A stretch of 40,795 nt of DNA from a virus: positions 1 through 40,795 of the IMG/VR virus record IMGVR_UViG_3300034104_004365. One strand, written 5' to 3'. The position numbers and the translations under genes are program-made. Every line of letters begins with the position of its first letter. The stretch's first letter is position 1. Positions 5,714 to 27,558 of this stretch are shown piece after piece. The notes beneath the pieces are model-generated. The model was given only the letters and a program-made list of their open reading frames with translations, had not been told where the DNA came from and did not search any database.

Positions 5714-8700
5714 TTATTTATCCTCTAGTTTTTGTAGAATGATATTAATTTTATCTTCTAGTGTATTTATATATGCTTGTTGTTCCTTGATTGCCTCGAT
5801 TAAAAGAGGAACAATACGCTCATAGCGAACAGTTAAGTAGTTTTCACCTGACTTCGAAATATTCTTACCAGCTTTATCATCCCACTGCCAATCGAATGGG
5901 GCTGGAGCAACAGCTTGTGGAAGCACAGCTTGTATTTCTTGAGCAAGAACACCAGCATCGTTTGTCTTTAGTTCGGGAGTAAATCCTAGCTCTTCAGCTT
6001 CGTCCACCCAATCAAACGTATAGCCACCAATAGACATTACTTTATCAAGAGCACTATTAATAGGAACAATATTAGTTTTAAGCCGACGGTCAGATGAGTA
6101 AGCTGTAATATTACCAGCTGCTGTAATCTCTCCATTAGAACCATCAAGGAAGATAACTCTACTTCCATTGTATGACCCGCTGGCTATATGAACTCTCGAG
6201 TTTGATGTACCGCCGTTACTACCAGCATAAAACCCATCAGCTCGCACAAGCGTTCCACCAAACCATGTGCCATTAGAAAAGGCGGATGTTTCATTAATTC
6301 GAAGATATGAGTCACTGGTTCCAATTGCATACTTACCATTGCCGTCAATGCGGTTTATGTTGGTTGTACCATTCAGATCTGCATAAAAAGCTGTATCAGT
6401 ATGATTATAAAAAATCGGCGCTCTTACATCACTGGCTGTAGATATGATCGAACCGGTCATATTTAAGTCACCGGAGAATGTGCGTCCTCCGGTGTTTAGG
6501 TATTCTACCCATCCGCTAAAACTATTACCAGAAACGTTTCTCTGGAACAGTCTATTAGAGTTGTCTTCCCAACCCCATGCAATCTGGGTACCCCAGAAAC
6601 TGCTTGCATTTGAGTGGCGCATACTCTCATAAAACCACCATGTACCAGCAGGACCACCAGAAGAAATATCACCGTGAAAGTTATAAGACGACACTGGAGT
6701 ATTTTGAAATCCGGTTGCCCAGTTTCCATTAGTATCTCTTGCACCAATATAAGTGCGGGTAATGTTTAAATTCGATGTACTATTAGGGTCTAAGAAATAC
6801 GCTGTCTCGGCGCTGTCATAATAAATTGTTGCATATAGACCGCCAGCCCCTGGAGAATTATATCCAAAGGATGGAAACTCATAGAGAGTTCCGTATGAAG
6901 TACCATTAGATGCTTGACTACTAATCCACATACGGGGAGTAGCTTGTCTAGATGTGTGTAGGGCACACATATTCAAAACATCGCCGCCTGCGTAACCATT
7001 AATCCATAGTGTATCTGACCAAAAACCAGCCACCGCAGTCATAGCTACTCTAAGACCAAGGCCTTGACCAAAATACGTTTGCGGGTTAAGCTGCTGTCCG
7101 CCATCATAGCGGGTTGTTAAACCACTAGATGTTGCAGCATTGCCAGTAACGTTAATACTCCAAGTGCCATCAGCAACTCCACGAATACTATTTTTTGCAT
7201 GGTCGAGAGAACTCTTTCTCGACCACCCATCACCATTACTGGTAATGAAACTGTTAATTGTCGGATTTTCTGTTTCAGATGTATTAAAGTTAATATGGTT
7301 AGCAAAAATATAACCGTTTCCATCACGACGAACAATGTGGTTTGCATTAACTCCGGTTGAAGCTTCAATAGTGGCTGAGTTTTGTTGATTTGTAATAGTG
7401 GCAGCAGTAATATTCCATGAACCAGATGCAGCTCCTCGAATAGCTGCTGCAACAGCCGCGGGCGTCGTACGAACCAGTTGGTTGGTCGTTGGGTACATTG
7501 ATGTTAATACTGTAGGTGTTTGTTCAGATAATCCTGAACTTAAAATAATTTCACGAGCCGCAATGTCTCCTGCAGCATCTCTATAAGCAATAGTACTTGC
7601 AGTAGGTGCAGTCGCAGGGTTATTAAATCCTGAGATTGAAGCAGCAGTACCGGTAACGTTAATGCCCCAATTTCCAGATGCACCTGTTCCTGTTAAGGTT
7701 GGTGAGTAAGTATTATAGTTAGCAGTTGTTAAAACTATATACCATGCACCCCATGTACTATCAATCCCGCTGCGAATACTTAAACGCGGTGGGCCAGATG
7801 CGTTTACTCCACTTTGATTTCCGAATGCCAATTGATATGAAGAGTCTCCGGTACTTGCAGTCGTTCCTGTCCACGGTGCAAACGTCATAACACCAGCATA
7901 GTTTCCTACACCATTACCAGCGCCTGCTCCGACAAAATCCCAATTTACTGTTCTTGTGAAAGTGTTTGGAAGTCTATCAGAAAGATCTCTTGGACCATCG
8001 TTGAATACTATTCTTAAAGCATTAGTAGCGTTTGTAGCTGTGCCGGCATTTCCTGTAATACTACCAGTAATTGTATTAGTAACAGTTAACCCAAGTAAGT
8101 TAGAAGTACCAGCAAAGTCACCATAAAATTCTGTGTTAGCACTATCATAAAAGATAGGAGCTCTACTAGATATTCGAGATTCACTATATCCAGTACCAGA
8201 AATGAAAAATTCGTTTCTTGCTACATAGTCAGTATATGTTCTTTTATTTCTAAAAGCCCACTGATCTGGAAGAGCATCTTCAATATCGTCAACAAGCTCA
8301 AATACCATACGCACTTGGTTTGTAGCAGGAGATTCTCCGTACAATCTCCAACCATCATTATCACCTACGGCTTGTGACAATAGATACGGTGGTACACTAC
8401 TTACACCATTTCCGTATGTTGTTCCAGTTGGATTTTGTGGAAGTGCTGCTGGACCCGCTGGGCCTTGTGGACCAGTCGGTCCTTGAACAGTCGAACCTGG
8501 AGGTCCTGGAGGACCCATTGGACCAGTTGGACCTTGAACAGTAGAACCAGGAGGACCGGCCGGACCTTGAACTGTAGCACCCGGTGGTCCGGCAGATCCA
8601 GTAAATCCTACCGGACCTTGAGCGCCTTGCGGACCTGTAGGTCCCATTGCACCTGTTGGCCCTTGAACTGTAGCACCTGGTGGTCCTTGAACAGTAGCAC

Positions 8701-9745
8701 CCGGAGGACCTGCTGGACCTTGTGCGCCAGCTGGACCCTGAACTGTAGCACCAGGAGGACCTCCCGGACCCATTGGACCTGTTGGACCTTGAACTGTAGC
8801 ACCCGGTGGTCCTTGAACAGTAATACCAGATGGTCCTTGTGCTCCAACAACACCTTGAGATCCCTGTGGACCCGTGGAACCTTGAGATCCAGTAAATCCA
8901 ATTGCTCCTTGTGGTCCTTGCGCACCAGTAATACCTTGAGAACCAGTAAATCCTGCTCCTTGAGATCCAGTGTATCCTTGGCTACCAGTATATCCAAGAG
9001 GGCCGGCAACTGTAGACGCAGATCCAGTGTAACCTATATCACCCTGTGAACCAGTAAATCCAAGCGAACCGGTGTAACCAATGTCTCCTTGAGAACCGGT
9101 AAAACCTTGACTGCCTGTAAATCCTGTATCACCTTTTGATCCGGTAAAACCGAGCGAACCTGTAAATCCAGTATCACCTCTTGATCCAGTAAATCCAGTA
9201 TCACCACGATCACCTGTTCTTGCAAACGTGATAATGATATCGAGACCATTAGTCAGTGATGTTGCGCCGGCAAGATATGCTACAGGAACCTGAAAGCTTG
9301 CTATGCCATCAACATGAACACCAGTAATAGAAAACTGAGAAAAGTTAGCAGTATTAGCCTTCTCGGTTACTGTGAAGTGACCCTTAATGGCAGATGTAGA
9401 GTCATCAATTGTTTGTAAGAAGTTAATGATTGGAACTAGATTATCGTCTTCATCATGAATGATGAGAGTGGTTGCATTGGTAAAATTGGTATTATTAAAC
9501 TTGAGTTGGCCGGCACCAGGATCTGACAGAGTTGTTGCAGTAGAAAATGTGTAGTCAAACGCTGCACCACCAAAGATACCGTCTTCACCTTTGTCGCCTT
9601 TTGATCCGGTAAATCCAGCACCCGACCCCCAATAGATTCCAGTTCCATTTGAAAGCAATGCTTGGCCTGAAGATCCAATAAAGCCATTGGCTACCAGACT
9701 CTTCAGAGAAACAGGATTTAAATAATGTACTGTATCTTTAGACAT
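5714..9745 (-). CDS. Collagen-like tail fibre with C-terminal S74 chaperone
   Basis: This 1343-aa protein is a modular adhesion fibre. Residues 1-43 carry a connector ([15 protein letters not shown]). A short collagen piece follows at about 44-60, then a compact beta domain at about 61-177. A collagen-like stalk runs from about 178 to 433, and a long Asn/Gly/Thr-rich shaft with three FYD-type repeats (for example [17 protein letters not shown]) from about 434 to 1217. The C-terminus is a peptidase S74 intramolecular chaperone: SDRRLK supplies the family Ser-Lys dyad (about S1218 and K1223). Self-cleavage would release the last 126 residues after trimer folding. The domain ends in [20 protein letters not shown] and a coiled coil. 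The start overlaps the preceding 403-aa gene by eight bases. It is probably a receptor-binding fibre; the receptor is unknown. Confidence 0.9.
8447..9214 (-). repeat. Collagen-like repeat tract of the 1343-aa fibre
   Basis: This tract encodes about 255 residues of Gly-X-Y type sequence. The N-terminal half is built from [15 protein letters not shown] cassettes. The C-terminal half is built from GPPG and eight TVQGP cassettes, each of which breaks the three-residue glycine spacing (G-A-T-V-Q-G). At DNA level, nine- to twenty-base blocks such as the TVQGP and PPG codons recur many times, so the tract is a good substrate for recombination. Confidence 0.9.
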
Positions 9746-10949
9746 TCGACAGAACTACCAATTGAGTATTTGAGAGAGTGCTTGACATATATGCAAATTC
9801 AGAAGGAACTGATGCAAATACGGCATTGGCAATAAGCTTATTTAACACACTTGTAGATGTAATGACTGCATTACCATTACGGCTTGCAATAACTCCATTT
9901 GCATTATAACTGAATGCAATCTTATTTGTTACTTGCTGAGCACCACAATTAATAGTATTTATGAAGATGTTATTTGAACCATCAACAAAGACTCGGTTGT
10001 TTGCAACACTCGAGTTCAAACTCAATATTGTATTTCCAGCAGCGACTGCGTTCCATTTAATATAGATCGAGCCTTCGTCTTGATTGTAAGTATGGAATGG
10101 CACATACTCTTTTACTTCAAAACTTTCAATATAAAGTCTATTGTTAATATCACCGAATCCGGCTGAAACATAAACATTATTTGTAGTTGGCGCAAAGATT
10201 ACAGAGAATGATGATTCTGTTGATGTGGCAATATATCCTCCATAGTCATTATCGCCAAAGTTCGAACCAACCTCAATACGTGAAGGTCCAGTATCTCTAT
10301 CTTCAGGTTGAGCAGAATAGTTTTGATCTGTTGTATAGTATGCATTACCAGTGAGAATATATCTTCTTCCTGGTAATACAGAGATCTCTTCAGTTTGGCA
10401 GTTATCTTTTTGGCCAGACGAGATAATTGTATTAGCTGACAAAATACTACCATTTACAGAGGTCCAATTAGTAAGAAGATTATTCTTTGTTTTGATTGGA
10501 CCCATTACGTCTGTAATAACATAAGCGTTTGCATGCACAAACTGATTGTTGTTTGCTTGACGAATACTGATATTGTTTGCGCCACTAAAGAAGATGCCAA
10601 GACCTTCTGTTGTTTGAATATTTCTACCTGAGAGAGTATTCTCTGAGTAAAGATTTGATGCAATCACTTGACGATCAATTGTAAATGATGATGGTATTAC
10701 AGTCGGAGTAACGTTCACAATACCAACATTATTTGCAATAGATACTGTCAGTTCAAGTGGCGTAACTCCATTTGCTGCAAGAGCAACTTGTTCTTCTGAG
10801 ACAGTGATACCATTATGATTCACGTCCAGCGTAGTATACCAATAAGTATTACCAGCCGTGACGTGAATCTTATAGTTGACAGTCTTCTCAGTCGGAAGAT
10901 CGAAAGTATCGATTGTCTGAGATGATGTGTTGGTTGTGGTAACTATCAT
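9738..10949 (-). CDS. Virion structural protein, probable fibre/baseplate adaptor with beta-sandwich domains
   Basis: This 403-aa protein sits between the two giant fibres and is coupled to both: it starts inside the stop of the 2466-aa gene (ATGA) and its last eight bases contain the start of the 1343-aa gene. It shows no catalytic motif. The N-terminal 100 residues are beta-rich, with [20 protein letters not shown]. The middle contains a stretch with [19 protein letters not shown] and [15 protein letters not shown] that resembles carbohydrate-binding beta-sandwiches. The last 110 residues ([19 protein letters not shown] through [17 protein letters not shown]) look like a LamG/concanavalin-type jelly roll. 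A role as a fibre adaptor or small adhesin is inferred from context and fold-like patterns; no close family is recognised. Confidence 0.55.
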
Positions 10950-13900
10950 TTAGCTTCCAGCTCTTCTACCTTGGCAGTAAGTTCTTTGATTGCTTCAATA
11001 AGTAAAGGAACAAGTCTTGAATAGTCAACTGTCAGATAGTCTTCACCAGACTTAGAAATAATTGTTCCATCATCTTGTGGATCGTAATCGAATGGAGCAA
11101 GAGCAACTGCTTCAGGAAGAACTGCCTTGACCTTCTGAGCTGAAAGACCTACCTGCTGCTTTGTGTTGTTATAGCCAACAGATCTTGCAAGCTCGTTCTC
11201 AACGTAGGTGAAGCCTTCAAGTGACTTGACTTTGGCAAGAGCATTATTAAGATTACCTGTCTTAGTCTTTAGACGTTCATCCGAATAATAAGCTGTAATG
11301 TTACCGGCAGCCGCGGCATCTCTTGAAGCACCGAACACATAGAAGTTATCTTGTGACGCAGAGCCCGACCAGTTCTGTACAACAAGATCGTTACCACTAC
11401 CACGAACAGAAGCATTTGGAGTACTATCAGTAGATGTGTCTGTTGTAAAGGCAACCCTGTTACCATTGCCTGTGATCCAGATTTCTCCATTGGCCCATAT
11501 AACACCCTGTGGAACAGAAGTAGCGCCACCAAGAGCAATAGAGGACATGACAGAAGTACCGGCAAAGTTTCCATAGTATGCGGTGTTATCGTTATCATAA
11601 AACAGCGGTGATCTTGCAGATCCACCAAAGAATGTGTATCCATATGGGAATTGAGTATATCCACCATCCCAATACCAGATCCAACCGCGGCTGTTATCAT
11701 GAACACCCACGTTATCACCCGTTGTCGACATGAATACGTGGCGTGAACCAATGCCCCATCCATACCAACCGTTGCGGCCGGCACCATAAGTAGTAACATT
11801 ACCATATGAATTGCTACCAGACTCTGGCGCCCAGAGTCCCTTGTCGTACGATTGGAAGTATACGCCCGTATTACCTTGTGGTCTAAACCAGTTGTTTGAA
11901 AACACTGCAGCAAACTGAGAATCCCCATTTGGATTTGCATAATAACCGGTGTCATTAGTATCATAGAAGATAGGAGCACGGAAATCGGAAGTTGCAAGTC
12001 CAGTTCCATGCACATGTAGTCTGTGTGAAGCGCTATCGCTACCTACACCAAAATTGCCTTTACTCCAAATGTTGTTTTCGCTATACCAGTTAAGGTACAT
12101 TGCAAATCCATTTTGACAATCCATATGCAGGTTGCCATTTGTTACTGCAACACTTGCTGCAGTGCCCACTCTTCCGTTTCCACCAACATACAGACTTGCG
12201 CCCCAAGTAACGTTGCCGCCAAAGTGTGCGCCGCCACGCACGCGTAATGCATTATCAGCAGTGCTGTTTGGATCGATGTAATAACCTGTATCGTTATTAT
12301 CATAGAATATATTAGCTCGAATATCAGATGTGTTGATATTACTTCCGCCGTTGACAATCAATTGCGCATTAAAGTAGAAGTTTGATCTATCCGTGTAAAT
12401 ATGCGCATGGCCAGAGTTTGCAGGACCAAACTGTATCCAACCGTATGGAGTATTGTGACGATAACCCCAATCTCCACCTGCAAAGTAATAGTCACCGTTG
12501 CCGTAATCCATACTTGCTAATCTGCTGCGCCCATTTGGATTGGCAAAATAAGCTGTATCATTACTATCATAGAAGATAGGAGTACGAAGATCTACGTTGT
12601 TTGTAAATGATGCAGAATTTATGGCTATTTGATTCCATGCATCGTAATCAGTATCCCAACCTGTACGAACCCAAAGGCCGTTTCCATCCGTTCCGTTGTG
12701 TGGAGCGTATAATTGGAACTTAGCTTGTCCGGAACCGGCCATGCTAAGTAGAACACCGTACATATATGCACCTGGTCTATTTGAACCAGAACCGTTTGTT
12801 ACGATTCTGTAGCTGGCTTCTGAACCATCAATATAGCTATTCCAGTCTTCAGATGTTACAGCATCTCTGAAACGAATATAGGTTGTATCGTTTCCGCTGC
12901 CAACTAGCGTTCCAGCACCAGCGTTCAGCGTGACTGTAGCGCTATTAAAGTTAAACTTTAGTACATCCGATGCATCATGATAGATACCACAATGTGAGAA
13001 TCCGGAACGGTGAAGACCAATACCTGCCGTGCCTGAAGTTGCTTGCACCTCAAACTGTAAGTCAGCATAGTAGTTACCCGGCGATGCGACGTTTCTTGTT
13101 ATAATTAAATCATTGAGGTTGGTCGTACTGGCTCCATCAAAGTAATAGCCAGTGTTATCTAAATCATAATAAATTGGTGCGCGCATGCTTTGGTTTGCTT
13201 GAGCATAAGAGCCATCTTTACCAATAGCAAATACTTGTGTTCCTAGATCTTCTGAATCATAAAAACGTATTCCACCATAGTTGGCTTGCGCACCCATACG
13301 GATACCTGTATGCCAGCGCAAATCTAGTTTATTATAGTTTCCGCCATAGTTTTCTAGATTTGTTCCAATGTAATAGTTGGTTTGAGCATCACCATCCGCA
13401 CCACCAAACATCAATCGACTACCGGTTGTAGAATTGTACGCGTTTTGACTGTCATTTCCTTGAATAGTAACATAACCATTTTGATCGATGAAAAGACCAT
13501 CGTTTCGCGTGCCACCTGAGCGAGTATAAAATGTTAATGAGCCTTGAGTCCAGTTGCCGGATGTACCAGCAATTTGTTTTTTAGCAACAATACCACCAAG
13601 GTTAACAGCGTTACCACTACCACTTTGTTCTCTTGAAACAAATGCCATAGCCACTGTAGTCTGATCACCACCATTTTCATTGTATAACGAAAGTGCAGGA
13701 CGTGATCCGTTAATACCGGCAGTAGCATTATCTGCGCGAATCAATAGGCCGGGTGTATGATCTCCTGGGTTTCTATATGTGGCACCTTCCCATTGGAAGT
13801 GAGATTGGCCATTTACTGTTTGGCCACCACCAAGCGACATGTTGACTAAAATAGACGTACTGGCTGGATCTACATAATACCCGGTGTTGTCATTATCATA

Positions 13901-16900
13901 AAAGATAGGTGAACGGAAACTGGCATAAGCGTAACCGATGTTTCCTACTTCTAAGTTAACCGGCGCATATGTATTTCTTAAATCACTTGTAATAGAAACA
14001 AACGTCTCAGTAGTAGTTAGGGTTGTGCTCCAGTTGCCAGCAAGATTCATTACACCATCATAAAACGAGCCATTGTGAATTTTACGAAGACGAATTGTTC
14101 CATAATTCCAGGATGAAGATGTGCCACCAAAGACTACACAGAATCGGTTGTTACTACCATCGTTTTTTACACCAAGACGAATAGACTTGTTCGTGTAACC
14201 AATCACATTACAACCTGTATTATACCACGCATTAGTCCAGTTGTGACCACCGATGATTACAGTTGCAGTGTATTGTCCAGTGTATTCGTAGATATCAAAT
14301 ACCATGTGAACCATGCCATAGTTCGACGTGGTACCAGGCAAGTAAAATATTACTTCGCCTGTAGATGTGCCAGATGCTGACCACTCTATTTCAGGGTGAG
14401 CATAGTTGTTACCCTGTTCGATGGTTCTATTTTGGCCTATGGTAATTTTTTTACCCCACGACGTACCGTCATATCCCCAAAGAGCAGCATCATTATTTTC
14501 GTCTAGCTGCCAGTTCCATGCGCGAGAGTTATCGGCATTAGCAAAATAAATACTGCTTGCAATGCTTGACGATCCTGCAATAAACGACCTGAATCCACTG
14601 CCCGCACGGGTTTCAACAGTAATCATTTGCGAAGTGCTGTTTGGATCAACGTATCGGGCTGTATCGTTGCTATCATAATAGATAGGACTATATACAGCTG
14701 TTTCTACCAGCAACCCATTAGTGGCTACAGACGTAGCAGCTATACCACTACCAATAGTAACTCCGCCATGCACGTGCAACTTTTTATTGGCAACACTAGA
14801 ACCGCCACCGCCGATAGCAAACGTCGACCCGGATCCATTGTACCATATGGTATCGTTACCTGCAACATCAGCCCAATTAATGCCAGCCCACGAAGTTCCA
14901 TTTCCATTTAAGTATAGTTGAACATCGTTTGATGCTATTGCTGAATGAATTCCAGATCTAAGAGGTACATAACCGCCTGCCGTGCCATCCCAAATATTGA
15001 AGTCGCCACTTGAATCCATACCAATTTGCATGCCTACACGGCCACTCCAATGAAAACCAATTCTTGGAGCATTGGAAAGAGATGTGGTAAGACCTCCACC
15101 AAAAGCCGTTTCACGTATCTCTAATGCGTTTTCGTAATAGTTTACTGATGCAGTTTCAGCGGCAATTCCTCCTGGCATATACAAATAATTAATCTTAGAT
15201 GTGGATGCCGGGTCAACATAGTAACCAGTATCATTACTATCATAGAAGATAGGAGCGCGCACGCTTGTATTAACACCAACGTAACCTCCGCTAATACCAG
15301 TAAAAGTAAAGTCAGTAGCCTCAAATGACACTGGTCCATAAGTAGCAGCATCGCGACTGTAAGAAATTACATATCCACGGCCGCCGTTTTCTCCAATTTC
15401 AATAGCTAACCCAGTGGCACTTGCGGATGCATCACCCCACCAACCAGCAGCACGAACTTGCCCAGCTCCATAGATGCCACCGGCAGTAATGAGAGATGTA
15501 CCAGTGTTAGCTGCATCTAAGTAATAAGCCGTGTTATTGCTATCGTAGAAGATAGGAGCACGAACGTCAGTACCGCTTTGGAACGAGTTATTTGTGAAAA
15601 CAATTGTAGGAGCAGTAAAGTCAGAAATATTCGTAGCTGATGGTGATTGATATACAAGTATATTACCACCATGAGCACCATGAGAAGTTACTTCAGGCCA
15701 ACTGGTTTCAATATATGTCTGGTATGTGGTGTAATACATTACTTCAACGTAAACAGAAATGTAATAATAGTCGCCAGATACTTGAGTTGGAGAACTACAT
15801 GTTACACGAGCATGTCTTCCGCGAGGAGACACACCTGCTATAAGATTGCAATCTACGTTATTATAGTCATAAGAAATTGCCCAGCGCTGATAATCACCGC
15901 CGTAATAGTAGTTATTATGAAGTTCTACAAACGTAGTTCCAGCACCGTGCCAATCATTAAAATCAATGTAAAGTCTAGCAATTTCATGTCGCCTAGCTTG
16001 TGTTCCAGATGCACCCAATGCGCCAAGATAATATTTGCGATGTGCACCTATAATAGATGTGCTTGTAGCCTGAATAGAGTTAGCGTTATTAATGCTATAA
16101 CCATTCATGTTCACGTTAGCTTGAGCAGTTCCACCCCACGAACCTGTGAAACCAATTGGTCCTTGAGCGCCAGTAGCTCCTTGAGGTCCCTGCGCACCAG
16201 TAGGACCCTGTGCTCCGGTAGCTCCTTGAGGTCCAGTAGCTCCTTGTGGTCCAGTAGCACCTTGAGGTCCAATTGCGCCCTGTGGACCCTGAGCTCCAGT
16301 TGGTCCAGTATTACCGGCAGATCCAGTAAAGCCAATAGCTCCTTGAGGTCCAGTAGCTCCTTGTGGTCCCTGTGCTCCAGTTGGTCCTTGCACACCTTGA
16401 GGTCCAGTTGGTCCTGGAGTACCTTGTGCCCCCTGCGCGCCAGTTGCTCCTTGAGGTCCAGTAAGACCCTGAGCACCTTGAGCTCCAGTCGGACCTTGAG
16501 GTCCAGTTGCTCCAGCAGGGCCCTGAGCACCTTGAGCGCCAGTAGGACCTTGGGCACCTGTTGCACCAGCAGTTCCTTGAGATCCAGTAAAGCCAATAAC
16601 GCCCTGAGCACCAGTTGCACCAGTAGGACCTTGAGCTCCAGTGGCTCCTTGAGCACCTTGAGCGCCAGTATTACCAGCAGATCCAGTAAAGCCAATTGCT
16701 CCTTGTGCGCCCGTTACACCTTGTGGACCAATTGCGCCTTGCGGGCCAGTAGCACCTTGGGCACCTTGTGGGCCAGTAGGTCCTGTTGGACCAATTGCAC
16801 CCTGTGGACCTTGAGGTCCAGCAACTCCTTGCACACCCTGTGGACCAGTGGCTCCTTGCGGTCCTTGGGCACCTGTTGCACCAACAGAACCTGTATATCC

Positions 16901-18346
16901 TGGAGGACCATACGCATAAAGTGCGGCTACAAAATATGTACCACCTGCGGCACCATTAATATTTTGAGAAGTGGTATTACCAGTAAAGGCAGTCAATTCT
17001 ACGTAATCAGAGGTTCCATTAAAGTACACAATTGTAGAAATTGTCTGGCCATAACCAGACCCAGTTACAATCTGTGCCTGATCGATAGCTAATTGTGTAT
17101 TACCATTTTTTCTTAGCTGAATATTAGTTTGATTATTTGTTACAGCACCAGCGTCCCACCAAACAGAAGCATCAAGACTATAATAACCGGCAATAGTAGG
17201 TTGGAATCTATTAGATGCAAACCAACCATTAGTATCAAAATCATCAACCAATGTAACAACGGTATCTGAACCATTTGTAACTGTCTGAGAAGATCCGTTC
17301 TTAACAGCGCGAACGACATATGAACCGGCTGTTAGCTGTCCGCCGTCTGTACCTTTTGATCCTGTGAAACCAATAGCACCCTGAGCGCCGGTTGCGCCTT
17401 GGACACCTTGTGGTCCGGTTGGACCAGTTACACCTTGAGCACCCTGTGCTCCTGTAGGTCCTTGTGCTCCAACAACACCTTGCGCTCCAGTAGCTCCTTG
17501 AGGACCTGTGGAACCTTGAGGTCCAACAGAACCAGTATATCCAGGATTGTTTGACCAGAATACAGCACTACCGTTAGATACAAGAGCTTGACCAGAAGTA
17601 CCTAAAGATCCGTTTGCATAGATTGAATTTGCATAAAGCGTATTTGCCTGGAAGTCAGCAATCTTAAAGCTAGCATTCGCTGTATCAATGAACGGTGAAG
17701 TATCTGGCTCTGGTAGATAACTATCAAAGACTTTATATCGACCATCTGTCGCATCACGGAAGAAACCTGTGTGATGATATGTTCCGTCGTTGTATCCGGC
17801 AGCAAACCCGATGTCTGGGTTGATATCTGTCTTACCACGAGCAGTACCACCTGATACATATGTAGCCGTATTAGTATTAGCAACAGTAAAGTGAGTGGCA
17901 TTTGCAATTAGAATATTTGTATAGGTTCCATTATAAGAACTTGGGTCTACCGCAGTAACATATACGTCCCAACCGGAAGAATAGTTATTATTGGCAGTAA
18001 ATGTAACAACAGAACCATTACCAGAAACGTTTGTAATAGTAGCAAGAACACCTTGGTTCAAATACAACATGCTGTCAGTAATTGACAGGTTATTACCAGA
18101 AATACTAATAGAAGTACCGGTAACGCTTAGGTTACCACCAATGGTTACGTTGCCACCTACATTCAGCGATGCAAGATTAGCACCAACTTCAAAGGCAACT
18201 GATCCGTTTGAGGAGTATACTTTATGGTCAGTAAGATTAACTGCAAACTCGCCAGCATCAATATAAGATGTGTTACCAGAGTTCGTGGTGTTTGGTGTAC
18301 GACCAGAAATAGTCGTACGTTTGAATTGAATCTTATTGTTTGCCAT
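10946..18346 (-). CDS. Giant collagen-like tail fibre with C1q-like domain and S74 chaperone
   Basis: This 2466-aa protein is the largest in the window. The ATG at 18346 ([12 protein letters not shown]) is chosen because GGGGAG lies six bases upstream; a TTG twelve bases earlier has no better signal. Order: a phage fibre header (1 to about 266), a short collagen stalk (about 267-335), a beta domain resembling the C1q/TNF fold (about 336-478, with [17 protein letters not shown] and [15 protein letters not shown]), and a second collagen stalk of about 85 uninterrupted Gly-X-Y triplets (about 480-737). A shaft follows with nine FYD-type repeats ([17 protein letters not shown]) and embedded beta domains, for example around [14 protein letters not shown]. 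The S74 chaperone at the end has SDERLK (about S2355, K2360), predicting release of a 112-residue C-terminal piece. It ends in an [14 protein letters not shown] coiled coil. Confidence 0.9.
11560..15575 (-). repeat. Nine dispersed FYD-type repeats in the giant fibre shaft
   Basis: Nine copies of a roughly 20-residue motif, consensus R-(A/S)-P-I-F-Y-D-x-(N/D)-(N/D)-T-(G/A)-Y-Y-x-(D/N)-P, lie near 11590, 11955, 12290, 12560, 13160, 13890, 14670, 15235 and 15535. Three more copies are in the 1343-aa fibre, near 6400, 6810 and 8135. The DNA is also conserved: a 15-base block TCATAGAAGATAGGA (plus-strand orientation) recurs in several copies. The repeats separate unrelated beta domains, so they look like shaft joints. 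Confidence 0.85.
16135..16905 (-). repeat. Long collagen-like repeat tract of the giant fibre
   Basis: About 257 residues of regular Gly-X-Y are encoded here, dominated by GAQ, GPQ, GAT and GPT triplets, with the recurring cassette [13 protein letters not shown]. Unlike the other two collagen proteins in the window, this tract contains no TVQGP interruptions. Confidence 0.92.
17342..17545 (-). repeat. Short collagen-like repeat tract before the C1q-like domain
   Basis: About 68 residues of Gly-X-Y ([19 protein letters not shown] and similar) lie between the fibre header and the C1q-like domain. Its first cassette, GYTGSVG, is repeated at the start of the longer tract on the other side of that domain, near 16900. 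Confidence 0.88.
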
Positions 18347-18391
18347 ATGGCTCCCCAAAGCAGATATATATCTTGTAAGCCAACTATTTAG

Positions 18392-18426: not shown

Positions 18427-20460
18427 ATGATGAAGATTGCTTTTATAGATACACTCGGCCTAACCTATGACGGATCCACTCTTGAAAAGAGAGGATTAGG
18501 AGGATCCGAATCTGCCGTCATTCGCATGGCACAAGAACTTTCTAAAATTGGATTTGATGTAACTATCTATAATGACTGTGAGTCTGACGATTCACTTCCT
18601 GGTTTTTATGATGGTGTACACTATCTTCCTGTATCTAATGCTAATAAGTTATCCAGCCAATATCACGACGTTGTTGTCGTATCTCGCTCTATAAAACCAA
18701 TCTTAGAAGACTGGACAGTCATAACAAGAGCAAAGCACGTCTGTCTCTGGATGCACGATACGTTCTGTGAAGGCGATGATCAGATCGAGTATCTGATTAA
18801 CATCGGCAAACTGCAAGAGATCTTTACACTCTCAGACTGGCATACAGGTTATGTCACTCATTGCGATCATGGATTCCGTCGTAACTATGACGTACTAAAG
18901 AATCATATTTTTTTGACTCGTAACGGCATCGGCAATATGAATCCTGGTTGGATTGATGTCCGTGACAAAGATCCGAATCTCTTTGTGTTCAATGCTTCGG
19001 TTACCAAGGGAATGATTCCACTTGTCAAACAGATCTGGCCAGAGGTAAAACGGCGTATTCCGGATGCGCAGTTGAAAATCATTGGTGGATATTATAAGTT
19101 TCGTGAAGCAGCAGGTCCAGACCAGCAACAAAAAGACTGGACTGATTTGATGATGCAATATGGTCATAGCATTGAGTTTACTGGTGTTATTACTCAAAAA
19201 CAAATTTCAGATATTTTATGTAAAGCTTCTTACATGATTTATCCGGTTGGTTTTCCAGAAACATTTGGTATCTCTACACTTGAAGCGCTGGCTCATAATG
19301 TACCACTTATTACTTGCCAGTTTGGTGCTCTCGAAGAAACGGCAATCGATCTGGCATCATGGAAGATTAAGTATCCTGTTGAACCAAACTGGGCAATGCA
19401 ATGGCTGAACCAGGAACACCAGGTGAATTTATTTGTTGACAAAGTCGTAGAAGCTTATAATACACCGTATCTTCACCAGCAAAAGATGTATGCTTGCAAT
19501 CAAGTCAAGGATATTTGTACTTGGGATACGGTTGCTCTCCAGTGGAAGCAACATCTTTATAAGAAGCTCGGCGAGTACTTGCCTGTTGAAGAGTATCGCA
19601 AAGTCACAAAGATTAACACCAAGGTTCGTAAAGTATTCAACCGTCGATTCTTGAATAAAGAAGAACTTCAGCCAGTTAAGATCTCAGATGAAAAATCTAT
19701 AGCTGTTGTTACACCTGTATATAATGCCGAAGCATACATTGAGAAATGTATTCGATCTGTAGCTGCGCAAGACTATACTGACTATCACATGTATATTATC
19801 GATGATTACTCGTCAGATAACACAGTAAAGATTGCTAAAGAGACTATTAACTCTCTTCCACAATGGCAACGTTGGCACTTTACTGTTTTAGAAAATGAAG
19901 AGAATCTTGGTGCTGTTGCAAATCACTTTGATACGTTTAAGCAATTAGTAACAGAGCAATACATTATGCTTCTTGATGGTGATGATTCACTTGTCAACGA
20001 TCCAACTATCTTCCATATGTACAACAATCTTTATCATGAAGGTGCAGAGTTTACATATGGATCGTGTTGGTCGATGGCCGATAACATCCCATTGATTGCT
20101 CAAGAATATCCGCCCAACATTAAAGCAAACAAATTCTATCGTGCGTATAGGTTCAATTGGAACATGCCATATACGCATCTACGAACATTTAAATCCTCGT
20201 TGATTAAAAACTTAACGAGAGAAGATTTGCAAATTGACGGTAAATGGCCACGAGCAGGTGGTGACACTTCACTGTTTTATTACTTAATTGAACGAGCAGA
20301 TCCGAACAATGTTGTTTGCATAACAGATATTGTAGTCAACTACAATGATTTGAATCCAATTAACGATTATAAAGTGAATGCAGAAGAACAAAATAAGACT
20401 GCAGCAAAAGTATTAAATTCTCCATTTTTTCCAGGACAGATAGATCTTAGACCGCTATGA
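18427..20460 (+). CDS. Bifunctional glycosyltransferase, GT4-like plus GT2-like domains
   Basis: This 677-aa protein appears to be two glycosyltransferases in one chain. The N-terminal half (about 1-385) is a GT-B, GT4-type enzyme: a glycine-rich donor-site loop GLGGSESA (about 24-30) and the retaining-enzyme E-x7-E signature ETFGISTLE (E278, E286). The C-terminal half (about 423-677) is a GT-A, GT2-type enzyme: VVTPVYNAEAYIEKCIRS, IIDDYSSDNT and the metal-binding MLLDGDD (about 517-520). No signal peptide or membrane segment is visible, so it is probably cytosolic. It transfers sugar from a nucleotide-sugar donor; donor and acceptor are unknown. The ATG at 18427 is followed at once by a second ATG; GGA is the only ribosome-binding-like sequence. 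It overlaps the next gene by four bases. Confidence 0.88.
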   Translation: MMKIAFIDTLGLTYDGSTLEKRGLGGSESAVIRMAQELSKIGFDVTIYNDCESDDSLPGFYDGVHYLPVSNANKLSSQYHDVVVVSRSIKPILEDWTVITRAKHVCLWMHDTFCEGDDQIEYLINIGKLQEIFTLSDWHTGYVTHCDHGFRRNYDVLKNHIFLTRNGIGNMNPGWIDVRDKDPNLFVFNASVTKGMIPLVKQIWPEVKRRIPDAQLKIIGGYYKFREAAGPDQQQKDWTDLMMQYGHSIEFTGVITQKQISDILCKASYMIYPVGFPETFGISTLEALAHNVPLITCQFGALEETAIDLASWKIKYPVEPNWAMQWLNQEHQVNLFVDKVVEAYNTPYLHQQKMYACNQVKDICTWDTVALQWKQHLYKKLGEYLPVEEYRKVTKINTKVRKVFNRRFLNKEELQPVKISDEKSIAVVTPVYNAEAYIEKCIRSVAAQDYTDYHMYIIDDYSSDNTVKIAKETINSLPQWQRWHFTVLENEENLGAVANHFDTFKQLVTEQYIMLLDGDDSLVNDPTIFHMYNNLYHEGAEFTYGSCWSMADNIPLIAQEYPPNIKANKFYRAYRFNWNMPYTHLRTFKSSLIKNLTREDLQIDGKWPRAGGDTSLFYYLIERADPNNVVCITDIVVNYNDLNPINDYKVNAEEQNKTAAKVLNSPFFPGQIDLRPL

Positions 20461-21056
20461 AAAAAATCTTAATTGCCATTCCAACTGCACGCTATATTGA
20501 AGCAGATACTTTCAAATCAATTTATGATCTGGAAGTTCCTGAAGGATATGAAACAACCTTTCAATACTTCTATGGATACCGAGTAGATCAGGTTCGTAAT
20601 CTGATTGCAGACTGGGTTGTGCGTGGATTTGATTATTTGTTTTCAGTTGATCATGACATTACATTTCCACCAGATACGCTAAAGAAGCTTCTTGCTCATG
20701 ACAAGGATTTGGTTTCTGGTGTATATCGTCAAAGACTTGAACCACAAATGCTTGAGATCTATGAACCGTTTGGTGGACGTATGTCAACCGAAGATCTCTA
20801 TGCAAAAGACTGGAATTTAGTTGGTATTGGCGGATGCGGATTCGGCTGTGTGCTAGTCAAGAAAGAAGTTCTGGCAGGTGTAGGTTATCCACAATTTGAA
20901 TATTACCCTGCTCTCGATCACAGCAATACTATCAGCGAAGACACTAATTTTTGCAAAAAAGCAATTACCAAAGGCTTTAGACTATGGTGTGACCCATCAA
21001 TTCGATGCGGTCATATTGGTTCTACGACTATGCTTGTAGAGATTCCGAAGATTTAG
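20457..21056 (+). CDS. Small GT-A-fold glycosyltransferase
   Basis: This 199-aa protein begins MKKILIAIPTARYIEADTF, a GT-A nucleotide-binding start. It carries VDHDITFPPDTLKKLL (DHD near residues 65-67), the expected metal and donor-sugar binding triplet, then LVSGVYRQR, GIGGCGFGCVLVKK and SEDTNFCKKAITKGF with a conserved acidic pair, and a final CGHIGST histidine motif. This layout is known from short glycosyltransferases carried by phages and bacteria. No membrane segment is visible. The ATGA overlap with the upstream bifunctional enzyme, and the lack of its own ribosome binding site, indicate translational coupling. Its 3' end overlaps a minus-strand gene by 29 bases. The acceptor (fibre protein, host glycan or DNA base) cannot be told from the sequence. 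Confidence 0.82.
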   Translation: MKKILIAIPTARYIEADTFKSIYDLEVPEGYETTFQYFYGYRVDQVRNLIADWVVRGFDYLFSVDHDITFPPDTLKKLLAHDKDLVSGVYRQRLEPQMLEIYEPFGGRMSTEDLYAKDWNLVGIGGCGFGCVLVKKEVLAGVGYPQFEYYPALDHSNTISEDTNFCKKAITKGFRLWCDPSIRCGHIGSTTMLVEIPKI

Positions 21057-23352: not shown

Positions 23353-23928
23353 CTAACTTTGAAAGTTCGGATTGCCAGTAGTTGTTGCATATAGGCTAAA
23401 TTCATTCACAGCAACTGGTGCCTGAGTTATTTTATGACGAATTGTTGCACTAAGAGTTGTAAAAACTGTTGTAACAAACTGATTGTCTGCAAAAACTCTC
23501 CAAACACGGGTAGTAGCAAGATCTAACCACGTATCAAGCGGATCGCTTGTACCTTCTAATGGATCACCGCTTAATTTTGTTACCAAAATTTCGTATTGAT
23601 TGGAATTGGCAGGGTTTACAATCCACGGATATTCAGTCTGGCTTGGTCCATAGTCATCGAAAATCACATTTCCGCTGGAATATATGACCCAAGCGCATTC
23701 AGCACCGAAGCTGAAATTAACTGTTTGAGCCTGATCATTGCTTATCTGAACTCGGTCTACAAAACCCTTCCATGTACTTCCATTCCAAACTTTGGCATTA
23801 GTTGCATATATCCACTCTGATCCATTCCAGACGCGAAACCATGCTCCATAATCGTTGTCAAATAAACCATCAGTTGGAGAGTTATTAACTATCGCCCACG
23901 ATGATCCGTTCCAATAATGCATTGCCAT
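23353..23928 (-). CDS. Structural protein with three WNGS-type repeats
   Basis: This 191-aa protein has three short repeats in its first 55 residues: HYWNGSSWAIV, RVWNGSEWIYA and KVWNGSTWKGF. The W-N-G-S-x-W pattern is known from phage tail-tip and fibre proteins, where it may form a small beta unit, possibly sugar-binding. The rest is a beta-type domain with aromatic-rich stretches (FSFGAECAWVIYSSGNVIF, TTRVWRVFADNQF). It starts inside the stop of the collagen-like 435-aa gene (TAATG), so the two are translationally coupled and may form one fibre: the 435-aa stalk has only a short cap after its collagen tract. A fibre-tip role is inferred. Confidence 0.55.
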   Translation of the reverse strand: MAMHYWNGSSWAIVNNSPTDGLFDNDYGAWFRVWNGSEWIYATNAKVWNGSTWKGFVDRVQISNDQAQTVNFSFGAECAWVIYSSGNVIFDDYGPSQTEYPWIVNPANSNQYEILVTKLSGDPLEGTSDPLDTWLDLATTRVWRVFADNQFVTTVFTTLSATIRHKITQAPVAVNEFSLYATTTGNPNFQS

Positions 23929-25235
23929 TAGATTTGAATCCAGATATCACCAGTTGCTGATGCTGATGGCTGTGGACCTTGCACAAACACCTGTCCACCA
24001 CCAGTATAACCTGATGTTACGTGGCGTAGAATTGGAGCTGCTGCCGATGCTGCACTTCCTGGAGGTCCTGGAGGACCAGCTGGTCCTTGAACTGTAGCAC
24101 CTGGAGGACCTTGTACAGTAGCACCTGGAGGACCTGCTGGACCCTGGACTGTGGCACCTGGAGGACCTGGAGGTCCAGCTGGACCTTGAACAGTAGAACC
24201 TGGAGGACCTGGAGGTCCAGCTGGACCTTGAACAGTAGAACCTGGAGGACCTTGAACTGTAGCACCTGGAGGACCTTGAACAGTAGCGCCTGGAGGACCT
24301 GGAGGACCTTGAACAGTAGAACCCGGAGGACCTGGAGGTCCAGCTGGACCTTGAACAGTAGAACCCGGAGGCCCTTGAACAGTAGCGCCTGGAGGACCTT
24401 GTACAGTAGCACCTGGAGGTCCCATAGGTCCGGTTGGTCCCATTGGTCCGGTAGATCCGACAAATCCTACAGGACCCTGAACTGTAACACCAGGAGGACC
24501 TTGAACAGTAACACCAGATGGTCCCTGTGCTCCAGTGATACCTTGCGATCCTGTAAATCCTACTGGACCTTGAACTGTCGCACCAGCTGGTCCTTGAACA
24601 GTAGCGCCAGCCGCTCCTTGTGCTCCTTGAGCTCCAGTGATACCCTGTGATCCGGTAAAGCCAATTGGTCCCTGTGCACCAACCGGTCCTTGAGATCCAA
24701 CTGGGCCTTGAGCACCAGTAGCACCCTGCGGTCCAATACCACTTATCCATGATACGTTAGTACCATCTGTTCTTAAGAAGAACCCAGTTGCACTACCTTG
24801 AGCTGGAAGAAGATTGTTTATAGCAGCGGCACGCGTTGATGCATTTGTACCACCTTGACCAATATTTAGAATACCGTTAGAGATAGAAGAAGCGTTTACA
24901 ATCAAGCCCATAGCATTCGCAATAATACCATCGCCGGCACGAATATTAATATTCGTTCCATTAGCAGCAATAATAGAATTCGAAAGACTTAGGTTGTCTG
25001 CAGATACCGTGAACGTTCTTGTAGTGTTACCAAGCAGAACACCGTTGGCAGTTGGAATCAGTTCGCCGCTGAGCGAAGTATTACTAAATGTAAGATTGCC
25101 GGTGACTGTAAGATCGCCATTAACTCCAAGAGTCTGGCGAACTTGCATATGCTGTGTAACTTCAACATTTGCAGTAAATGTAGAATCACCGTTTACTAAT
25201 AATCCATTATCTACTTTAAAATTAGTGTTTGCCAT
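23928..25235 (-). CDS. Collagen-like fibre protein without chaperone domain
   Basis: This 435-aa protein has an N-terminal beta-type segment (residues 1 to about 165; [39 protein letters not shown]) ending in a connector, [16 protein letters not shown] collagen-like stalk of about 228 residues follows, with 15 TVQGP cassettes that interrupt the Gly-X-Y register. The cap is only about 37 residues ([19 protein letters not shown] to GDIWIQI). There is no S74 chaperone, unlike the two larger collagen proteins. It is coupled to the downstream 191-aa gene and starts eight bases after the 771-aa gene. It is probably a short fibre whose trimerisation depends on the cap or on a separate partner. Confidence 0.85.
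24056..24738 (-). repeat. Collagen-like repeat tract with 15 TVQGP cassettes
   Basis: This tract encodes [22 protein letters not shown] units, most of them sharing near-identical 24-base DNA blocks. The TVQGP cassette is the same as that in the 1343-aa fibre (8 copies) and absent from the giant fibre, which points to exchange between these two genes. Confidence 0.9.
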
Positions 25236-25242
25236 GTCAACC

Positions 25243-27558
25243 TTACTTAATTAGATGAGCTATAACTTTAACCGCGGAATTTGCAACGGTCTGTTGAAGA
25301 TATAAATTCACGTTGGTATCTGAAGAACCAGTATTTGCTATAAATGTTCCAAGAGGAGATGCCGCGCCAGTTGAAGCAACTGTACCATAGACAGTCACAT
25401 ATGCATCGGTTGTGCCATTATGAGCAAGCACAAGTTCAGAAAGCTGTGTGCTGCTACCTTTCTTTACTTGAACTTCAAACTTGGCCGATGAATATGTTGC
25501 TTTAGGGAATGTGTAGATTAGCACTGCTCCAATTACATTTCCAATATCAGCATTTGCAGACACATCAACTACATAATCTGTTTTGAATGTGGTAGTTCCG
25601 CCAATTGCAACTGCACCTGATAAGGTTGATTGACCGGCAACTGTTAATGTTCCATCAGTCTCAATAGCAGTTGATGTAATGAATGTATTAACCGTAGCGT
25701 TACCAACATTAATTCTTGTTAATGTAAAATTAACATTGGCACCAACGTTCATTGCAACAGAAGCATTTGCTGTTGTGGTATTCATGGCACCAGAAAGAGT
25801 GCTCAATCCGGTTACACTTAGTGTATTCGAAAGTGTAGTAGCGCCAGTTACACCCATTGTATTAGATAATGTAGCAGCACCTGTAACACCAAATGTGTTG
25901 GATAATGTAGCAGCACCTGTAACACCAAGTGTGTTAGACAGTGTAGTAGCACCAGTTACACTAAGCGTATTTGATAATGTTGTAGTATTAGCAACCGATA
26001 GAGTACCATCAGTTTCAATAGCAGTAGCTGTAATGAATGTATTCTCAGAACTAGTACCGACAGTAATTCTTGTATTTGAAAGATTTACGTTAGCACCGAC
26101 ATTGATTCCAACCGAAGCATTCGCTGTTGTGGTATTCAATGCAGCATTTAGTGATGCAAGACCTGCAACAGTTAGAGTATTTGAAAGAGTTGTAGTATTA
26201 GTAACTGTGAGTGTGCCGTCTGTTTCAATTGCAGTAGCTGTAATGAATGTATTAACAGTATTATTGCCAACATTAAATCTATCTAATGTAAGATTAACAT
26301 TAGCACCAATATTTACAGCTGTAGAAGCATTTGCTGTTGTGGTATTTAGTGCAGCATTCAATGATGCAAGACCCGCAACAGTTAGAGTATTTGATAGTGT
26401 TGCAGTATTAGTAACCGCCAACGTATCAGATAATGTGGTAGCTCCAGTAACTGTTAATGTACCATCAGTCTCAATTGCAGTAGCTGTAATGAATGTATTT
26501 TGTAAACCAGTACCAACTGTAATTCTTGTATTTGAAAGATTTACGTTAGCGCCAACATTCATTGAAACGTTTGCATTTACTGTCGTTGTGTTTACATTAC
26601 CAGAAGCGTTTGCTAGACCAACTACTGTCAGTGTATTCGATAGAGTAGCATTGCCAGTGACAGCAATGGTGTTTGAGAATATAGCATTACCTGTGATAGC
26701 AACGGCATTTGAGAATGTAGCATTACCTGTTACAGCAATAGTGTTTGACAGAGTAGCATTACCAGTAACAGCAATCGTATTCGATAATATAACATTGCCT
26801 GTTACTGCTAAAGTGTTTGAAAGTGTAGTGTTGCCAGTAACAGCAATTGTATTTGCAAAGTTGGCATTTGATGTTACGTTTGCAGCACCGGAGATTGTTA
26901 GGTAGTTTGTTGGTGTAATCACCAGGTTAGCAATACCAGTCCAAGAACCATTACCAAACTTACTGTCGAATGAACTGTTACCAACAACTATCGTATCAGC
27001 ATTTGCAAACACATTTGCACCAATAGCCACCATTGTGGTATTACCAACAAACAAACCAGTACTAAAAGCATTTGCAGTCATATTTGCAGTAGTTGTACTA
27101 TCTGCAACTTGAATGCGTGTTGGCCGAATATTCGTGTTGACAGTACTGCTAGATTGTGTTATAATCAGACTACTGTTTACAATAGAATTAGCAGTTCCTA
27201 AGCCAAGGTGAACACCAAGTGGACTCATGAAACTGTTAGAAGTACTGTTACCAACCAGAACGCGAATACCAGCATCAGCAGCAACATATGCAGTTGCATT
27301 CGAAGTAATTACAAGATTGGCAGAGTTACCAGTCTGAACATTACCACCACGTAGTGCAGTTCCGACAGCGATAGTATTTGCACCAAATGTACCCCAAAGC
27401 TGAGCAGTGCGAGCAATAGTATTATTGCCGGTATTAGCAACAGTAGTATTTGCAGTAATAATTTCAGTGGAAAATGCTGACAGGAGCTCGTTAGTCTGGA
27501 GCAACCAAACTTCAAAGCTATCAGTAATGATATCAACGTTAGCTACTTGTCTTGACAT
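25243..27558 (-). CDS. Repetitive Asn/Thr-rich fibre or tail-spike-like protein
   Basis: This 771-aa protein opens [18 protein letters not shown] and [17 protein letters not shown], an N-terminal region seen in fibre-associated proteins of T4-like marine phages. After a beta-type segment to about residue 230 it becomes highly repetitive. Two blocks of tandem 12-residue units (consensus [12 protein letters not shown]; seven and five copies) alternate with a larger unit present four times ([18 protein letters not shown] through [15 protein letters not shown]). This suggests a stacked beta-solenoid or triple-beta shaft. The last 125 residues ([39 protein letters not shown]) form a non-repetitive domain, probably a tip or docking domain. 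No enzyme motif and no S74 domain are visible. It starts on the stop codon of the 69-aa gene. Confidence 0.75.
25625..26870 (-). repeat. Tandem 36-base repeats and a four-copy larger repeat in the 771-aa gene
   Basis: Twelve-residue units (36 bases) occur in two clusters, near 26630-26860 and 25805-25985. A larger unit containing the plus-strand string GTAATGAATGTATT recurs near 25678, 26032, 26242 and 26490. The high identity at the DNA level suggests recent expansion or gene conversion. Confidence 0.85.

What the first reader, a model, noticed from the sequence alone, without database searches (positions are those of the whole stretch)
23928..25235. Collagen stalk interrupted at regular intervals by TVQGP cassettes
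In the 435-aa protein 15 cassettes, and in the 1343-aa fibre 8, replace a Gly-X-Y step with G-A-T-V-Q-G (four residues between glycines). Such G4G breaks are known as flexible points in type IV collagen. Here they recur every few triplets with near-identical DNA, while the giant fibre's stalk has none. This suggests two deliberate stalk designs, one hinged and one rigid.
Basis: partly seen in the sequence, partly recalled or inferred. Interest (0 to 1): 0.6.

Follow-up and report, generated by a model that had tools for sequence, protein, structure and literature searches.

The report
Conserved breaks in phage collagen stalks
A T4-like phage from an environmental sample builds two of its fibre stalks from collagen that is broken at many points by one exact five-residue step (G-x-T-V-Q), kept letter for letter by selection, probably so that the stalks can flex without changing their length.

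Summary
The stalk of the 435-aa protein (residues 168-395) parses without remainder into 51 Gly-X-Y triplets and 15 Gly-x-Thr-Val-Gln ("G4G") steps. The 1343-aa fibre has 69 triplets, 8 such steps, one G6G and one G1G. The 2470-aa giant fibre has 23 + 87 unbroken triplets.

The breaks are not decay. In 97 cassettes from 12 related stalks, T, V and Q use 4, 4 and 2 synonymous codons with no amino-acid change, while the residue before them varies. In a sample of 340 other viral collagen tracts, 28 carry G4G steps, with consensus x-S/A-V/I-T/Q. Unrelated phages, including cultured cyanophage S-CAM7, carry arrays of up to ten. So this is a recurrent phage design, not a peculiarity of TVQGP.

Orthologues with 75-79% identical N-terminal domains have stalks with no breaks, so the breaks are dispensable. 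Number and distal positions change between relatives, but five 435-type stalks with 15, 11, 10, 4 and 0 breaks are 226-228 residues long. The giant stalks vary widely.

"Hinged" is plausible but untested; "rigid" for the giant is only the absence of breaks. Known kind (collagen interruptions), new variant.

The parts
23928..25235 (-). 435-aa fibre protein carrying the stalk with 15 TVQGP cassettes
   Evidence: ORF; Pfam Collagen PF01391 at residues 168-211, E 1.7e-12; PHROG tail fibre families; orthologues in about 15 distinct viral contigs
24735..25235 (-). N-terminal domain (residues 1-167), probable attachment and trimerisation domain
   Evidence: Conserved 57-99% among orthologues; AlphaFold2 monomer model poor (mean pLDDT 45.5), short strands only; role is inference
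24051..24734 (-). Collagen stalk, residues 168-395: 51 GXY triplets + 15 G4G steps
   Evidence: Parse without remainder; tandem-repeat structure incl. a 123-bp unit, 2.1 copies
24076..24608 (-). The 15 G-x-T-V-Q-G-P cassettes (first base of each on this strand at 24101, 24125, 24158, 24200, 24242, 24266, 24290, 24323, 24365, 24389, 24413, 24491, 24515, 24584, 24608)
   Evidence: Pattern scan, 0 expected by shuffles
23928..24050 (-). C-terminal cap (residues 396-435, [40 protein letters not shown]) + stop
   Evidence: 75-100% identical in orthologues with or without breaks; replaced by a Peptidase_S74-like or other domain in some
5714..9745 (-). 1343-aa tail fibre with Peptidase_S74 chaperone domain at its C-terminus
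   Evidence: Pfam Collagen and Peptidase_S74; PHROG tail fibre families
8447..9214 (-). Stalk of the 1343-aa fibre (residues 178-433): 69 GXY + 8 TVQ G4G + 1 G6G (GSASTVAG) + 1 G1G (GAG)
   Evidence: Parse; cassettes at 8472-8827
10946..18358 (-). 2470-aa giant fibre with no TVQGP; stalks of 23 triplets (17336-17542) and 87 triplets (16127-16909)
   Evidence: Parse; Pfam Collagen and Peptidase_S74; orthologues also TVQ-free

Best explanation
The 435-aa and 1343-aa proteins are trimeric tail or baseplate fibres of a T4-superfamily phage. Their collagen stalk carries a selected G4G break cassette (G-x-T-V-Q-G-P) in many copies. At each cassette the three chains lose one residue of the Gly-X-Y register. 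The triple helix should be locally loosened there, so that the stalk bends at many small joints, while the chains stay extended and the stalk keeps its length. The array is copied, lost and reshuffled by tandem duplication. Selection keeps the T-V-Q core exactly and, in the nearest relatives, the number of residues in the stalk, but not the number or exact place of the breaks. The giant fibre of the same phage is not given breaks of this kind. SHOWN: the parse, the codon-level conservation, the independent recurrence in other phage collagens, the absence from the giant, the near-constant residue length in five stalks. INFERRED: trimer formation, local loosening, bending, and any benefit in reaching receptors.
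For: Parse without remainder and 0 chance matches. 97 cassettes in 12 distinct stalks: T uses 4 codons, V 4, Q 2, with no amino-acid change, while the x residue is A/S/V/I/N; a single random change of ACT-GTT-CAA would be silent with probability 7/26, so even 7 silent changes in a row has p about 1e-4. Independent arrays with the same chemistry: GPSVTG x10 (L360), G-D/N/E-S-V/I-T-G x10 (L314, and cultured Synechococcus phage S-CAM7, which has GDAVIG/GDAIIG x4 in a second fibre), GEAIQG x3 (L459). V or I is the majority residue at position 3 in 14 of 25 loci with G4G steps, against 10.6% background, p 3e-8. Stalk residue length 228, 227, 226, 227, 228 with 15, 10, 11, 4, 0 breaks (CV 0.3%; unit count CV 5%), as expected if break residues stay extended. 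Literature: a single short break (GQG) bends a triple helix by 11-85 degrees in solution, and kinks occur in type IV collagen and C1q (PMC9898670); an E. coli prophage collagen fibre is a trimer with a semi-flexible stalk by EM (PMC3368898).
Against: No structure, trimer prediction or EM of this protein. Orthologues work with unbroken stalks (L503, L015), so breaks are dispensable. Distal break positions are not conserved. The same data fit sticky or docking patches. G4G peptides are known to me from type IV collagen work only from memory. The length constancy does not hold in more distant orthologues (156-318 residues).
Confidence: 0.55

Rival explanations
1. The cassettes are exposed hydrophobic patches (Thr-Val at each break, three chains) that make stalks associate side by side, dock on the tail, or bind a partner or the cell surface; flexibility is incidental.
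For: The core is conserved by residue identity (T-V-Q, not just any four residues), which binding explains better than mere loosening; V/I at position 3 recurs in independent phages. Interruptions that promote association of collagen peptides are reported (recalled, not tested).
Against: Copy number and positions change freely between close relatives, and orthologues lack the motif altogether; no partner is evident.
Confidence: 0.2
2. Neutral expansion: a repeat-prone DNA stretch multiplied by slippage and recombination, tolerated because the stalk is forgiving.
For: Tandem-repeat structure including a 123-bp unit with 2.1 copies at 90% match; lineage-specific 11- and 14-residue periods in L012 and L011; orthologues without breaks.
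Against: Zero amino-acid change in T-V-Q over 97 copies despite ample synonymous change; constant stalk residue length despite different arrays; independent recurrence.
Confidence: 0.15
3. The near-identical cassettes serve mainly as homology for recombination that reshuffles fibre genes.
For: Cassettes are shared between the 435 and 1343 genes of the same phages and both lack them in contig G013, which looks like spread within a genome; the rewritten part of the 435 stalk is the cassette-rich part.
Against: DNA identity is not what is kept: third positions vary. Equally repetitive GXY DNA without cassettes would serve.
Confidence: 0.06
4. The tract does not fold as a triple helix; with 15 breaks in 66 steps it is a disordered or polyproline-II linker.
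For: Breaks are only one triplet apart at several places, which should destabilise a triple helix strongly; no prolyl hydroxylation is expected in a phage.
Against: Register is kept exactly (5 + 3n spacing, Gly at every third position between breaks) and GPP is enriched (18 of 51 triplets, against 1 of 110 in the giant). Pure linkers would not need Gly in register. Residue-length constancy suggests a rod.
Confidence: 0.04

Closest known systems
Natural interruptions of type IV collagen (G4G and G1G breaks) and the GQG break of mannan-binding lectin / kink of C1q
   Same: Short in-register breaks in a Gly-X-Y stalk; known to loosen and bend the triple helix (PMC9898670). The type IV break G-A-A-V-M-G-P (recalled) has the same A-x-V pattern as G-A-T-V-Q-G-P.
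   Different: Here one cassette is repeated 15 times in 228 residues, at up to one per triplet; animal collagens carry diverse breaks at lower density (recalled). Not homologous as a family; resemblance is by form.
Collagen-like prophage fibres of E. coli (EPcl proteins)
   Same: Trimeric phage fibre with Gly-X-Y stalk between end domains; [quoted passage not shown] semi-flexible stalk by EM (PMC3368898).
   Different: A single break of another type, not an array; different end domains.
Synechococcus phage S-CAM7 tail fibre (QLF86285.1 and a second fibre)
   Same: Array of ten G4G steps (G-D/N/E-S-V/I-T-G) with 14-23 residue spacing, and GDAVIG/GDAIIG x4 in another fibre.
   Different: Different core (SVT, AVI), different phage group, annotated only as tail fibre or hypothetical protein.

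Membership tests
Collagen-like phage tail fibre | Uninterrupted or nearly uninterrupted Gly-X-Y tract recognised by Pfam Collagen | tested here: met
   PF01391 E 1.7e-12 at residues 168-211; full stalk parse
Collagen-like phage tail fibre | Sits among tail or baseplate genes of a phage | tested here: met
   Neighbours match baseplate wedge, tail fibre, L-shaped tail fibre assembly, neck (Hc2) and terminase families
Collagen-like phage tail fibre | Forms a trimeric triple helix | not testable with these tools
   No multimer prediction available; monomer model of the N-terminal domain poor
G4G collagen interruption | Exactly four residues between two glycines, Gly-X-Y in register on both sides | tested here: met
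   All 15 + 8 cassettes
G4G collagen interruption | Local loosening or bending of the triple helix | not testable with these tools
   Needs biophysics; only literature on other breaks
G4G collagen interruption | Hydrophobic residue inside the break | tested here: met
   V at position 3 in all 97 cassettes; V/I majority in 14 of 25 other loci. That this defines animal G4G breaks is recalled, not tested

The most novel reading that the evidence does not exclude
Phage collagen stalks count residues: selection fixes the stalk's residue number (about 227) regardless of how many G4G joints it holds (0 to 15), so that flexibility can be tuned by adding or removing joints at constant reach. The TVQ, SVT and AIQ cassettes would be interchangeable, independently evolved joint modules.
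Probability: 0.3. Interest if true: 0.65.

Novelty: new variant of a known kind. Interest (0 to 1): 0.48.

Why it matters
If right, phages have solved repeatedly how to set the bending of a collagen rod with a short coded joint, without hydroxyproline. That gives a natural series (same end domains, same length, 0, 4, 10, 11 or 15 breaks) in which the mechanical effect of collagen interruptions, debated for type IV collagen, could be measured directly, and a ready set of parts for recombinant collagens of chosen stiffness.

Tried and rejected
GPP stabilisation as a general partner of breaks: rejected. GPP is high in this stalk (18 of 51) but 3 of 59 in L011, 0 of 69 in L104, and not raised in other G4G tracts (1.7%, against 1.5% in unbroken ones). 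TVQGP as a motif confined to this phage: rejected (single or few copies in L041, L049, L070, L104, L108, L119, L135). VQGP in the C-terminal cap as part of the series: rejected, orthologues have VSGS, VSST, VTST there. Isolate relatives of the 435-aa protein: none in 50,697 phage records, though BLAST's low-complexity filter hides collagen. N-terminal domain structure: model too poor to search with. PDB sequence search: only a type XI collagen chain, E 5.5e-4, compositional. Literature on G4G breaks in phages: none found in the held library.

Full report
What is there. The window is a 40.8-kb virus record with terminase, neck (Hc2), baseplate wedge and fibre genes. The baseplate wedge protein at 37639-40245 has distant matches in Sinorhizobium phage phiM12, Caulobacter phage Cr30 and other phages (33-39% identity), so this is a distant member of the T4 superfamily with unknown host. 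Three proteins carry collagen stalks. The 435-aa protein has 51 Gly-X-Y triplets and 15 G-x-T-V-Q steps, the 1343-aa fibre 69 triplets, 8 such steps, one G6G and one G1G, and the 2470-aa fibre 23 and 87 triplets with no break. The DNA pattern is found 23 times against 0 in shuffled sequence.

Selection on the cassette. I collected every G4G block, whatever its letters, in 12 distinct stalks (orthologues of both fibres) with at least two TVQG. All 97 are xTVQ. T is written with four codons (54/31/8/4), V with four (74/18/3/2), Q with two (78/19), and the following P with four; x is A, S, V, I or N. So the DNA has diverged while T-V-Q-G-P has not. Neutral repeats or DNA-level homogenisation do not explain this. 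Stalks were chosen for having TVQG, but the blocks inside them were not.

Recurrence. Two generic collagen patterns in viral contigs gave 340 distinct tracts with 13,434 triplets; 191 tracts have no break. Breaks are often a house type repeated within a tract: G6G with core (A/D)STV(A/T/P), G5G such as EFAGQ, G1G, and G4G. The 64 G4G steps in 28 tracts have the consensus x-S/A-V/I-T/Q; by locus, V or I is the majority at position 3 in 14 of 25 against a background of 10.6%. Arrays of ten occur in L360 (PSVT) and L314 (D/N/E-SVT), and in the cultured Synechococcus phage S-CAM7 (ten SVT/SIT steps in one fibre, four AVI/AII steps in another). TVQ itself appears singly or in small sets in other phage collagens. 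The window's 435-aa stalk, 15 G4G steps in 66 units, is denser in G4G than any tract of the sample (highest 14.5%).

Same protein without breaks. Orthologues found through the N-terminal domain show what varies. The 435-type stalk has 15 breaks in the window and L008, 10 in L011, 11 in L012, 4 in L104, none in L503 (79% N-terminal identity) and L015 (75%), G6G steps in L509 and G1G steps in L020. Contig G013 lacks TVQ entirely although the N-terminal part of its giant fibre is 98% identical to that of the window. So breaks are an option, not a requirement. The giant fibre lacks TVQ in all relatives seen; in some, its first stalk has one G6G.

Length. In the 435-type stalks with 15, 10, 11, 4 and 0 breaks the residue number is 228, 227, 226, 227 and 228; the unit number is 66, 69, 68, 73 and 76. 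In the 1343-type fibre, stalks with 8 and 5 breaks are both 256 residues and align without a gap, although about 35 residues in the middle have been rewritten with a different glycine phase. In the same phages the giant stalks are 69+261, 85+201, at least 57+219 and 159+372 residues. Each stalk has its own tandem arrays (42-bp and 33-bp periods in L011 and L012; a 123-bp unit in the window), so equal length is not simply lack of change. Caveats: the stalks are related, the five were noticed after the fact, and more distant orthologues range from 156 to 318 residues (33 in one), as do other 1343-type stalks (216-348). I treat the length rule as suggestive. If it holds, it is residues, not triplet units, that are kept, which fits chains that stay extended through each break.

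Mechanism. Best reading: each cassette is a small flexible joint in a trimeric rod. A single GQG break bends a triple helix in solution (11-85 degrees; PMC9898670), and a prophage collagen fibre is trimeric with a semi-flexible stalk (PMC3368898). Bending at TVQGP has not been shown. The rival that explains the strict T-V-Q identity equally well is a hydrophobic contact patch. Absence of breaks in the giant suggests, but does not show, a stiffer rod.

Novelty. Collagen interruptions, including a conserved one in prophage fibres, are known. What appears new is the array: one coded G4G cassette used many times, evolved independently in several phage groups, with a natural series of stalks of equal residue length and different break number. 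No paper on such arrays was found in the held open-access library; subscription papers such as the 2014 census of collagen interruptions could not be read.

Noticed in passing
L314, L360, L344, L432, L461; S-CAM7 L612: Phage collagens often repeat one 'house' interruption within a tract (G6G ASTVT x12, G5G FAGQ x12, G6G LSNFQ x9, G4G SVT x10), suggesting a general, unsurveyed repertoire of coded collagen breaks.
   Followed up: partly
window 10946-18358 and L477-L480, L476, L602/L609: Giant-fibre stalk length varies widely between phages whose N-terminal domains are 88-98% identical (87, 67, 73 and 124 triplets in the long stalk).
   Followed up: partly
L014:4001-5171 and L510: 435-type genes in which the reading frame breaks: in the cassette region of L014, and within the N-terminal domain, just before the stalk, of L510. 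They may be assembly errors or real frameshifts.
   Followed up: no
window 25243-27558 (-): 771-aa protein next to the 435-aa gene, made of repeats such as AVTGNxTLSNTL, with no Pfam match; looks like a beta-structured fibre shaft.
   Followed up: no
window 18427-21056 (+): Two genes on the opposite strand between fibre genes look like glycosyltransferases (677 and 199 aa), possibly modifying fibres.
   Followed up: no
L019 (L507), ORF from 5090: 1170-aa open frame of Gly-Asn-rich repeats (GNPGNNGNGGAGG...) just downstream of a 435-type protein whose own stalk is cut to 11 triplets; possibly another glycine-rich fibre type in its place.
   Followed up: no
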